Assembly: GCA_903928685.1 (NCBI GenBank)
Contig: CAIYRS010000115.1
Coordinates: 1 to 64,000, forward strand
Direction of reading: 5' to 3'
Length of the DNA stretch: 64,000 bases
Source of the DNA: an uncultured Methylococcaceae bacterium
GTDB lineage: Bacteria > Pseudomonadota > Gammaproteobacteria > Methylococcales > Methylomonadaceae
A program made the position numbers and the translations under genes. Shown piece after piece: positions 13,295 through 56,374 of the stretch (the stretch's first letter is position 1; the number at the start of each line of letters is the position of its first letter). Under the pieces are notes generated by a model, which worked only from the letters and a program-made list of their open reading frames with translations, was not told the DNA's origin and did not search any database.

Positions 13295-14104
<810 letters not shown>

Positions 14105-53046: not shown

Positions 53047-53193
53047 TTTCAGCAATGCTTGATGGCGAAACATGAAAGCCATTAAGCCCAAGCCTGTTGC
53101 GGAGTAAAAAAACAGGTTTTTTACGCTGTTAAATTTCCGGTAATGGTAAAAATCAACGTGAAGTTGTTTTTCAAAGATCCCATCAAAAAACAT
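53008..53193 (-). CDS. Doubtful small ORF antisense to the HIT gene end
   Basis: A 61-codon ORF whose ATG has GAGGAG at a proper distance, formed by the left 24-nt repeat. It has one hydrophobic stretch (LFFYSATGLGLMAFMF). Its last 13 codons lie antisense to the HIT gene. It resembles no family known to me and may be chance. Confidence 0.2.
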   Translation of the reverse strand: MFFDGIFEKQLHVDFYHYRKFNSVKNLFFYSATGLGLMAFMFRHQALLKLTRRPSQLPTAQ

Positions 53194-53206
53194 GTTTTTT
53201 GACTCC
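53183..53206 (-). repeat. 24-nt inverted flanking repeat, left copy
   Basis: On the minus strand this reads GGAGTCAAAAAACA followed by TGTTTTTTGA. It matches the right copy (56079-56102) at 23 of 24 positions in opposite orientation. Its core is itself a palindrome. The two copies enclose the Roc-COR gene and about 280 bases before it. Confidence 0.8.
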
Positions 53207-53467
53207 TCTTACGTGCGATCACTTAATTTTTTACCACTGCCATGTAGATAAGATTACAAACCAATACGGTTAAGTTGCAGTCGAGGACGAACGGAAAAAT
53301 CCTCAACTTAACGGCATTGGGGTACAAACTTTTCCAGCATGATATTACATCACCCAAAGTAGGATGAGCTGAAGCTAGGAAGCCCATCAAAATTAGTGGC
53401 CTAATGATGGGTTTCCTAACGCCAACTCATCGGCGATAGTATTCAATTTTAAACAGGGGTATTGGCT
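53207..53467. other. Leader region of the Roc-COR gene with a hairpin
   Basis: No ORF. A stem formed by AGGAAGCCCATCA and TGATGGGTTTCCT lies at about 53377-53418, and a further pair TGAGTTG-like arms surround it. No clear promoter was seen. AGGGG at 53455-53459 is the ribosome site of the gene that follows. Confidence 0.5.
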
Positions 53468-56065
53468 ATGGCATTGAGTAGACAGGAGGTTAAGGAGCGG
53501 TTACAGGGGATGCCGAAAGATAAATGTGCGGCATTTGCTGTGCGTTCGGCTATGCGGGTGTTGCCTGTACTGGCGATTGACAAATCGATCCAATTGGAGG
53601 TGTTCCCATTCTGGAAAAAGCAAGATAAGGAAAAATACTTATTGGCTATTTTTCAGGTTTATGGAGGGGTAATTGCCTATGCGATCAGTGGCCATGCTAG
53701 AGTTTACCTTGGCTCTAGTTACGACAGAGTCGGCGCAGCTGCAAGTCTAACTTACTCTGCAAATCCTATTTATCCCCTCTATGTGATTTATGCACTGATC
53801 TACGCAGCATCCAACGACGCGCCTTTCGCCGTCCACGCAGCCAACGTTGCCGCAAATTATGCGTTACCTGAAATCCTCCAAGATTTATCCGATTTACCCC
53901 ATTTATCAGCAATGGAATTACTCAACAAACCACTTTGGTCAGGCACTGCCCCATTAGAATGGCAACAGTTACTCAGCGATTTTAACCAAGCCGCCTTAAG
54001 TTTGGACGCGGGTTTTGAAGTCTGGTTGGCTTGGTATGAGCAACGATTATTGGGCAAGCCTATTGATATTGATTTGTTACAGCAATGGAATCGGATTCCT
54101 TCGGAAATTAATGCCCAAGGCCCGGTAGCCATTAATGCCTATCTTAAAAATATTTCCGAGAAAACCGCCACCCGCCCGTTAAATCGGGTACGCGCTATTT
54201 TTATAGGCTATGGCGAAGCAGGCAAGACTTCCTTGGTTAAGGTTTTAAATGGCGAGCCAGTCACCGAAGACTGTGTGGATATGACCGCAGGCATCGACAT
54301 CAGCGATTGGCGAGTTCCAAACACCGAGATTAACGCGCATTTTTGGGATTTTGGTGGGCAAGTGATGGCACATGCCACCCACCAATTTTTTCTGCGGGAA
54401 CGCTGTTTGTATGTGTTGGTTTTAAATGGGCGCAGCGAAATTAACGGCACAGAACAAGCCGAATATTGGTTGGAGCATGTAAAAAGTTTCGGTAAAAATG
54501 CCCCAGTGATGATCGTTGCCAATAAAGCGGATAAGGCTAGGTTGAGTGTCGATATGGGCTATTTAAAAACCAAATACCCCAGCATTATTGATTTGTATCC
54601 GCTGGCTTGCACCCAAGTAAAGGGCGCTTTTAAAGCTGAGTTTGAGCGGTTTTTCCGGGATTTTTGTCAGCACCTGCAATGCGTAGACACCCATAATATG
54701 CTGTTTACCGAACAACAGTTTGCGGTGCTGGAAGCTTTGCGGGTTTATTCGCCACAGTCGGCGTTTTTAAAGCAACAAGAATTTGCCGCTATTTGCCAAC
54801 AGCAGGGCATAGGCGCTGACGGAGTACAAAATCAAGCGTGGTTATTGGATATTCTGGATAAATTAGGCTTGGTAATCCATTTTCCCCAGCTGCCGTGTTT
54901 GGAAGAATTTGTGTTAAATCCCCGTTGGTTAACGCATGGTGTGTATACCTTGATGTATGGCGGACAAGCCAAACTCAGCGAAGCTGATGTTATAGAGCGC
55001 TTACGGAATAAATCTATTAGCGATGAAAACGGCATTAGATTGGAATACCCTGCCGAGAAATGCCGTTTTATTATGGATGCCATGCAGGAATTTAAGTTGT
55101 GTTATCCGTTACCGAATGACCGCAAAACCTTGATTATTCCTGAGTTGTTGCCCACCGATCAGCCAGCGGCAATCTCTTTTAATAAAACTGGGGCGTTGGC
55201 GTTTGAATTTGTGTTTCGCGGCTTTTTACCCCGCAACATCATGCCGGAGCTGATTGTTAACCGCCATGAAGAAATTGTTGAGGAGACGGTATGGCAGCGC
55301 GGTGTGTTGTTGGCGCATAAAACCGATGCCGCCCAAGCCTTGTTGCAAGTGGATTATCACGAGCGGGTGCTATCGATTTGGGTAACAGGCCACGATGCCA
55401 AAGATTATTTGTATCTGTTAAATAATGCGGTGTTAACCATCATTCGTCGATTGAATTTGGATTGTGAAGAGCTTGTTGAACTGCCGCTATCTGCGTGTAT
55501 AAATCAAGATGCGGTTGTGCAAATACCGGAAAAAGTGGACTATCGGCAATTACTAAATAGTTTTAAAAATGGCATTACTAATTTTCCTGCAAAACATAAT
55601 ATTTATGATTTACGCAAGGTATTGGGTGTCATCATGCCGGAAAGCAAGTTGGCAGAAAATTTATTCATAGGTCATATTGGCGACAAAGTAAGGGAGAAAC
55701 ACATGATAAATATTGGTGATGGTAATCATATTGGTGGTTCTGTTGTTGCGGCAGGAAAAATCGAAAACAGCTTTAACCAGTTGGGGCAATCCAAAGCTGA
55801 TGAGGGTGTTAAGCAGTTACTGGCTGACTTACTAAAGGAAATCGAAGCGTTAAATGCCAAAGTGCCTGCTAGCCAACATCAAAACCTTGAAGATATGACA
55901 AACGATGCAGAAACGTTGGTGAATGAAACTAAGCGCGAGTCGCCAAGAGCGGCGTGGTATCAATTAAGCCTGACAGGCATTAAAGATGCCGCTATTGCCT
56001 TAAAAGAATTCGGCGAGCCAGTTTATGAAATGGCAGAAAAGCTTTCACAAGTTTTGTTGGTTTAA
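53468..56065 (+). CDS. Roc-COR (Roco) GTPase with novel flanking domains
   Basis: 865 residues. Residues 1-235 form a mostly helical region with the stretch AFAVRSAMRVLPVL, not a leucine-rich repeat domain as in most bacterial Roco proteins. The Ras-like Roc domain follows: P-loop GYGEAGKTS (247-255), switch DMTAGIDI, WDFGGQ (293-298) and NKAD (352-355). A COR domain covers about 410-660. The C-terminus has a glycine-rich segment (INIGDGNHIGG, about 746) ending in KIENSFN, then a helical tail. The ATG at 53468 fits the AGGGG site better than the TTG at 53462. It stands alone next to tRNA-Ser, flanked by 24-nt inverted repeats. A defence or signalling role is inferred. Confidence 0.85.
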   Translation: MALSRQEVKERLQGMPKDKCAAFAVRSAMRVLPVLAIDKSIQLEVFPFWKKQDKEKYLLAIFQVYGGVIAYAISGHARVYLGSSYDRVGAAASLTYSANPIYPLYVIYALIYAASNDAPFAVHAANVAANYALPEILQDLSDLPHLSAMELLNKPLWSGTAPLEWQQLLSDFNQAALSLDAGFEVWLAWYEQRLLGKPIDIDLLQQWNRIPSEINAQGPVAINAYLKNISEKTATRPLNRVRAIFIGYGEAGKTSLVKVLNGEPVTEDCVDMTAGIDISDWRVPNTEINAHFWDFGGQVMAHATHQFFLRERCLYVLVLNGRSEINGTEQAEYWLEHVKSFGKNAPVMIVANKADKARLSVDMGYLKTKYPSIIDLYPLACTQVKGAFKAEFERFFRDFCQHLQCVDTHNMLFTEQQFAVLEALRVYSPQSAFLKQQEFAAICQQQGIGADGVQNQAWLLDILDKLGLVIHFPQLPCLEEFVLNPRWLTHGVYTLMYGGQAKLSEADVIERLRNKSISDENGIRLEYPAEKCRFIMDAMQEFKLCYPLPNDRKTLIIPELLPTDQPAAISFNKTGALAFEFVFRGFLPRNIMPELIVNRHEEIVEETVWQRGVLLAHKTDAAQALLQVDYHERVLSIWVTGHDAKDYLYLLNNAVLTIIRRLNLDCEELVELPLSACINQDAVVQIPEKVDYRQLLNSFKNGITNFPAKHNIYDLRKVLGVIMPESKLAENLFIGHIGDKVREKHMINIGDGNHIGGSVVAAGKIENSFNQLGQSKADEGVKQLLADLLKEIEALNAKVPASQHQNLEDMTNDAETLVNETKRESPRAAWYQLSLTGIKDAAIALKEFGEPVYEMAEKLSQVLLV

Positions 56066-56078
56066 GAAGCTTAAGGCT

Positions 56079-56102
56079 GGAGTCAAAAAACAAGTTTTTT
56101 GA
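56079..56102 (+). repeat. 24-nt inverted flanking repeat, right copy
   Basis: GGAGTCAAAAAACA followed by AGTTTTTTGA, beginning 13 bases after the Roc-COR stop. One base differs from the left copy. On its own it could act as a weak hairpin terminator, but the match to the left copy is longer than the stem requires. Confidence 0.8.
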
Positions 56103-56284: not shown

Positions 56285-56374
56285 TGGCGGAGAGGCAGGG
56301 ATTCGAACCCTGGGAGGGGATCAACCCTCAACGGTTTTCAAGACCGCCGCATTCGGCCGCTCTGCCACCTCTCC
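56285..56374 (-). tRNA. tRNA-Ser(UGA)
   Basis: The acceptor stem GGAGAGG/CCTCTCC, a long serine-type variable arm (GAGGGTTGATCCCCTC), the T-loop GGTTCGAATCC and the encoded CCA end are all present. The anticodon TGA (plus-strand 56338-56340) lies in CTTGAAA. 90 bases including CCA. The gene is single and is the nearest stable-RNA gene to the Roc-COR locus. Confidence 0.97.

What the first reader, a model, noticed from the sequence alone, without database searches (positions are those of the whole stretch)
53468..56065. Roc-COR GTPase with a non-LRR N-terminus and a glycine-rich tail, as a candidate conflict-system protein
The central Roc and COR domains are clear from the P-loop, WDFGGQ and NKAD motifs. 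Most bacterial Roco proteins carry leucine-rich repeats; here the N-terminal 235 residues are a different helical region, and the C-terminus has a GDGN-x-IGG segment ending in NSFN that looks like a modular sensor or effector tail. The gene is alone, beside a tRNA gene and in a repeat-bounded segment, as expected of an accessory gene.
Basis: partly seen in the sequence, partly recalled or inferred. Interest (0 to 1): 0.62.

Follow-up and report, generated by a model that had tools for sequence, protein, structure and literature searches.

The report
LRR-less Roc-COR GTPase, likely defence switch
A methane-oxidising bacterium carries a lone, sporadically distributed gene for a large GTPase switch of the LRRK2 (Roco) type, in which the usual leucine-rich sensor is replaced by an unnamed helical domain that also occurs on a KAP ATPase; it is probably an uncharacterised immune-type switch, but no activity has been shown.

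Summary
The gene is real: window 53468-56065, 865 aa, with Roc, COR-A and COR-B far above Pfam cut-offs. The N-terminus has no LRRs. It is a helical domain (no Pfam or PDB match) whose middle expands into DNA-encoded Ala-rich repeats in relatives. The 'glycine-rich tail' does not end in NSFN; it continues into a predicted helical bundle of about 95 residues.

New evidence:
- Rocos with this N-domain form one fully supported clade.
- The N-domain also occurs on a Rhizobium plasmid, fused to a KAP NTPase (hhalign E 1e-20; survives masking of the Ala core).
- The tail also occurs on a Nitrosomonas plasmid protein beside a restriction-like cluster; that copy matches a PADLOC candidate-defence family.
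- Only 3 of 20 same-genus genomes carry the gene, and none of the 18 relatives whose HIT locus was read has it there. Each relative I mapped is a lone gene in another context. The closest gene is from another genus.

Weaker points: the flanking repeat is a dispersed ~120-bp element with a 24-nt partial match on the right; no att duplication at the tRNA was found. Defence function is inferred, not shown.

Verdict: a new variant of the known bacterial Roco (AP-GTPase) conflict proteins.

The parts
53468..56065 (+). Roco gene, 865 aa (N-domain, Roc, COR-A, COR-B, glycine-rich segment, helical tail)
53468..54172 (+). N-domain, residues 1-235: helices only in a low-confidence model, no LRR; conserved ends (FAVRSAMRVLPVLA; GFEVWLAWYEQRL...NAYL) around a fast-evolving middle (41-140) that is an Ala-rich repeat in relatives
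54173..54667 (+). Roc GTPase domain: P-loop 247-254 (54206-54229), WDFGGQ 293-298 (54344-54361), NKAD 352-355 (54521-54532), conserved Arg322 (54431-54433)
54722..55150 (+). COR-A (419-561)
55196..55597 (+). COR-B (577-710)
55700..55777 (+). Gly/Asn-rich segment HMINIGDGNHIGGSVVAAGKIENSFN (745-770)
55778..56062 (+). C-terminal helical bundle (771-865), shared with a Nitrosomonas plasmid protein
53120..53238 (.). copy of a dispersed ~120-bp genomic repeat containing the palindrome TCAAAAAACATGTTTTTTGA
56079..56102 (.). 24-nt partial inverted match to that repeat
56285..56374 (-). tRNA-Ser(TGA); neighbour, no att duplication found in the window

Best explanation
It is a single-gene, horizontally moving intracellular conflict switch of the Roco (AP-GTPase) type. 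Proposed cycle: the protein rests as a RocCOR dimer. The helical N-domain, which occupies the LRR position and diversifies by repeat expansion, detects a cue of infection or damage. Sensing shifts the GTP-driven dimer-monomer cycle of RocCOR and frees the C-terminal module. The tail, a Gly/Asn-rich segment plus helical bundle, then self-associates or recruits a partner to trigger the response (growth arrest or block of the invader). Shown here: the domain architecture, conserved GTPase motifs, a clade with a shared N-domain, sharing of the N-domain with a KAP NTPase protein and of the tail with a plasmid protein, patchy distribution. Known from others for C. tepidum Roco: the GTP-driven monomer-dimer cycle. 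Inferred: sensing by the N-domain, output by the tail, and the conflict role itself.
For: Architecture and motifs. Nine Rocos with the N-domain, or in one truncated contig part of it, are one clade, support 100/100, apart from LRR-Rocos including the second Roco of the same genome. N-domain fused to a KAP NTPase on a Rhizobium plasmid (PF07693 2.8e-26; hhalign score 139 against at most 20 in 40 shuffles, 105 with the Ala core masked). Kaur et al. 2021 (PMC8195603) report KAP ATPases and AP-GTPases displacing STAND NTPases in bacterial counter-invader systems, and Roc-COR proteins with variable N- and C-termini as a conflict system. Tail shared with a Nitrosomonas plasmid protein beside a TnsA-like/methyltransferase/helicase cluster (hhalign 83 against at most 19 shuffled); that tail matches PADLOC PDC-M14B at 8.9e-8. 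Divergence pattern against close relatives: Roc 69-78%, COR 61-64%, middle of N-domain 22-35%, tail helices 34-52% identity. Accessory: 3 of 20 genus genomes, not at the HIT locus of 18 relatives, closest gene from another genus (95/93; same-genus grouping rejected only marginally, AU p 0.042). GTP cycle of CtRoco: PMC5714945, PMC11052575.
Against: No known effector enzyme is present in the protein. No recognisable defence genes flank it or the mapped relatives (flanks read by eye and ORF list, not by a full defence scan). No second tail-bearing protein was found in the genome that it could recruit. The query's own match to PDC-M14B is weak (E 0.0011). Sporadic genes need not be defence genes. 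The KAP and Nitrosomonas fusions are one example each.
Confidence: 0.5

Rival explanations
1. The tail is itself the effector: on release the helical bundle inserts into or disrupts a membrane or binds an essential target directly.
For: C-terminal position equals the effector position of Kaur et al.; predicted helical bundle with two amphipathic helices (moments 0.61 and 0.58); tails differ in distant relatives (L033, L034).
Against: No transmembrane segment (highest 19-residue KD mean in the whole protein is 1.49, and it lies in the N-domain); structure searches give only generic helical bundles.
Confidence: 0.2
2. It is a cellular signalling Roco with no conflict role (stress or growth regulation), spread by ordinary gene transfer.
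For: Solitary gene beside housekeeping genes; little is known about Roco function in bacteria (PMC6337361).
Against: Rare and scattered, repeat-diversified N-domain, modules shared with KAP and plasmid proteins, other Rocos beside BREX, inside a CRISPR-associated transposon and beside MoxR/EAD10 genes.
Confidence: 0.22
3. The tail is an effector-associated adaptor (EAD) that pairs with a second copy on an effector encoded elsewhere.
For: Kaur et al. report EADs at the C-terminus of bacterial AP-GTPases; tail is modular.
Against: No second copy in the genome by sequence or profile search; in relatives every tail hit lies in a Roco.
Confidence: 0.08

Closest known systems
Bacterial and archaeal Roco proteins with LRR-Roc-COR (C. 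tepidum Roco 6hlu/8r4b; M. barkeri Roco2 4wnr)
   Same: Roc, COR-A and COR-B align over residues 208-740 (8r4b) or 209-561 (4wnr); P-loop, DFGGQ, NK.D and the conserved arginine are kept.
   Different: No LRR; a different helical N-domain; extra C-terminal Gly/Asn-rich segment plus helical bundle.
AP-GTPase (Roc-COR) counter-invader systems of Kaur et al. 2021 (PMC8195603)
   Same: Central GTPase-COR with a fast-evolving N-terminus and variable C-terminus; sporadic distribution.
   Different: Described with LRRs at the N-terminus and recognised effectors (TIR, caspase, GT4, EADs) at the C-terminus; neither is seen here.
KAP NTPase fusion on Rhizobium leguminosarum plasmid NZ_CP018229.1 (L113 3548-6709)
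   Same: Homologous N-domain, with the Ala-rich repeats.
   Different: KAP P-loop NTPase in place of Roc-COR; no similar tail seen.
PADLOC PDC-M14B candidate defence family / Nitrosomonas plasmid protein WP_347889122.1
   Same: C-terminal Gly/Asn-rich segment plus helical module.
   Different: Unrelated N-terminal part, no GTPase; the query's direct match to PDC-M14B is weak (E 0.0011).
LRR-Roc-COR-TIR protein of the same genome (L035 6445-9201, G000:C53)
   Same: Roc-COR core (37% identity).
   Different: LRR sensor and TIR effector; lies outside the clade of the query.

Membership tests
Roco (Roc-COR) family | Roc GTPase domain with P-loop, DxxG and NKxD | tested here: met
Roco (Roc-COR) family | COR domain directly after Roc | tested here: met
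   COR-A and COR-B
Roco (Roc-COR) family | GTP binding and nucleotide-driven dimer-monomer cycle | not testable with these tools
   needs purified protein
Prokaryotic group-1 Roco (LRR-Roc-COR) | N-terminal leucine-rich repeats | tested here: not met
   no LRR by Pfam in the query or six relatives; 0-1 LRR-like motif matches against 5-14 in most LRR-Rocos
AP-GTPase counter-invader system (Kaur 2021) | fast-evolving N-terminal region on a conserved GTPase-COR | tested here: met
   regional identities; the region is not LRR
AP-GTPase counter-invader system (Kaur 2021) | recognised effector or EAD at the C-terminus | tested here: inconclusive
   no Pfam match in the tail; tail relates to a PADLOC candidate family mainly through the Nitrosomonas protein
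[quoted passage not shown]
   only the gene itself; sensitivity is limited for such a divergent tail
PADLOC PDC-M14B | match to the whole profile | tested here: not met
   only profile positions ~162-243 of 275 match, E 0.024 (whole protein) and 0.0011 (tail alone)
Anti-phage defence system | protects a host against phage or plasmid | not testable with these tools
   needs challenge assays

The most novel reading that the evidence does not exclude
A class of LRR-free bacterial immune receptors in which an unnamed, repeat-expanding helical sensor domain is plugged into different NTPase switches (Roc-COR here, KAP in Rhizobium), with a new type of C-terminal output module shared with plasmid-borne candidate defence proteins.
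Probability: 0.4. Interest if true: 0.65.

Novelty: new variant of a known kind. Interest (0 to 1): 0.45.

Why it matters
A 2019 review states that all identified prokaryotic Roco proteins carry LRRs (PMC6337361), and what bacterial Rocos do is essentially unknown although they are the model for human LRRK2. A clade that keeps RocCOR but swaps sensor and output gives a natural test of what the RocCOR switch transmits. A sensor domain shared between KAP and Roco NTPases would name a new immune module to look for. If defence is shown, it would place Roco GTPases beside NLR/STAND ATPases as bacterial immune receptors.

Tried and rejected
Island inserted at the tRNA with an att duplication: the tRNA 3' end has a single copy in the window. 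Clean transposon with terminal repeats: the palindrome has 12 genomic sites, the left copy is part of a ~120-bp dispersed repeat and the right match is only 24 nt. Phage or prophage carriage: no match in phage records or viral contigs. Direct link of the tail to AbiTii proteins through PDC-M14B: L116 is AbiTii (PF18864 2e-37) with a similar tail layout, but direct profile comparison is not significant. A hit of the tail profile in G764 is a chance match to an unrelated protein. The N-domain model is too poor to search with (mean pLDDT 45), so its fold is open. The tail model gives only generic helical bundles in the PDB and nothing significant in viral structures. PDLC04448 search gave no hit even in control genomes, so it says nothing. 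Promoter and terminator scans gave no more sites than shuffles. The structure tool's stated list of allowed sources does not name genome-search loci, so its alignments were limited to two sequences.

Full report
Observation. The ORF at 53468-56065 is intact and encodes 865 residues. Pfam finds Roc, COR-A and COR-B with strong scores and nothing in residues 1-235 or 720-865. Against solved structures the central part aligns with C. tepidum and M. barkeri Roco proteins. All GTPase motifs are kept, and Arg322 aligns with an arginine of both (LLLDSR in CtRoco, LVLDSR in MbRoco). From memory this is the catalytic arginine whose mutation abolishes GTPase activity; the review describes such a residue without giving its number in the passages I read (PMC6337361). 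Arg322 is invariant in all seven aligned proteins.

N-terminal domain. Seven sequences show one domain with two conserved ends and a variable middle. In several relatives the middle is a long Ala-rich array (AAYAAARDA...) encoded by short DNA tandem repeats of about 6-39 nt units; the query's copy is short and degenerate (Ala 14%, against 25-31% in L030, L034 and the Rhizobium protein). No LRR motif and no PDB match were found. AlphaFold with two sequences predicts helices only, at low confidence. A search of plasmids with one relative's domain found a Rhizobium leguminosarum plasmid protein of 1053 aa, which is a KAP NTPase. Profile comparison gives E 1e-20; shuffles reach a score of 20 against 139, and with the Ala core masked the score is still 105. 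So the match does not rest on composition.

Tail. Close relatives share the tail. L033 and L034 are very different there (13-20% identity to the query), and the similarity of their tails to the query's is marginal. The tail recurs at the C-terminus of a 480-aa protein on a Nitrosomonas europaea plasmid, next to a TnsA-like/methyltransferase/helicase cluster, with profile score 83 against at most 19 in shuffles. That protein matches PADLOC PDC-M14B at 8.9e-8 over the tail; the query itself matches that family only weakly. On the same plasmid a second, partial copy of the tail (52 residues, 92% identical) lies just downstream, which fits a shuffling module.

Distribution. In 61 genomes of the genus, family and order, the N-domain is found in 7 and the tail in 4. 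Within the genus 3 of 20 genomes carry the gene, one of them twice. In 369 genomes sampled over the class only one further genome has it. The HIT gene upstream is present in 19 of 20 genus genomes, and in none of the 18 others read is it followed by this gene. The relatives whose surroundings could be mapped lie alone in different contexts. In the Roc-COR tree the nine proteins of this kind form one clade (100/100), the query pairs with a gene from another genus (95/93), and grouping it with its genus mates is rejected marginally (AU p 0.042). This fits horizontal transfer.

Mobility marks. The left flank holds a copy of a ~120-bp dispersed repeat, the right flank only a 24-nt inverted match to it. 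The palindrome has 12 sites in the genome. No tRNA 3'-end duplication was seen in the window, and no integrase lies between the flanking housekeeping genes. The element-like framing is therefore weak, though the gene is clearly accessory.

Interpretation. Kaur et al. 2021 describe prokaryotic AP-GTPase-COR proteins as a conflict system with LRR sensors and at least 24 C-terminal domains, and note that KAP ATPases or AP-GTPases may take the place of STAND NTPases in related systems (PMC8195603). The present protein fits the plan but not the parts: its N-terminal region is not LRR and its tail is not a named effector. I therefore do not file it as a group-1 LRR-Roco or as an EAD protein, but as a new variant of the Roc-COR conflict type. 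The switching step is taken from C. tepidum Roco, which is dimeric without nucleotide and monomeric with GTP (PMC5714945, PMC11052575). Sensing, output and the conflict role are inference.

Other bacterial Rocos found here have defence company, which raises the prior: one beside BREX genes on a Haliscomenobacter plasmid, one inside a I-F CRISPR-associated transposon in Photobacterium, one beside a MoxR ATPase and an EAD10-WD40 protein in Nostoc, and an LRR-Roc-COR-TIR protein in the window's own genome.

Noticed in passing
L035 6445-9201 (G000:C53, own genome): Second Roco of the same genome: LRR-Roc-COR-TIR (TIR_2 9e-14; PADLOC ThsB 2.4e-32), a textbook AP-GTPase conflict protein.
   Followed up: partly
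L110 3305-6043 (Photobacterium toruni plasmid NZ_CP101696.1): An LRR-Roc-COR gene with an HTH gene sits between TniB and TniQ of a I-F CRISPR-associated Tn7-like transposon (Csy2 downstream).
   Followed up: no
L109 2378-8383 (Nostoc sp. UHCC 0926 plasmid pn3): SAV_2336-type N-terminus fused to Roc-COR, beside a MoxR ATPase and an EAD10-WD40 protein: a Roco apparently in a ternary conflict system.
   Followed up: partly
L124 1292-6113 (Haliscomenobacter hydrossis plasmid pHALHY02): Roco gene between a macro-domain protein and BREX genes (DUF1788, brxC).
   Followed up: no
L108 8437-8592 (Nitrosomonas europaea plasmid NZ_CP157070.1, record 13604-13759): Partial duplicate of the tail module (52 residues, 92% identical) just downstream of the full copy.
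   Followed up: partly
window 53120-53238 and L023-L027: Dispersed ~120-bp repeat with palindrome TCAAAAAACATGTTTTTTGA, 12 palindrome sites in the genome; in some copies it starts a short ORF MFFDGIFEKQ... after a GGAG; nature unknown.
   Followed up: partly
L116 1441-2331 (G750:C143): AbiTii protein with a C-terminal Gly/Asn-rich plus helical tail that matches PADLOC PDC-M14B; similar layout to the query's tail, homology not shown.
   Followed up: partly
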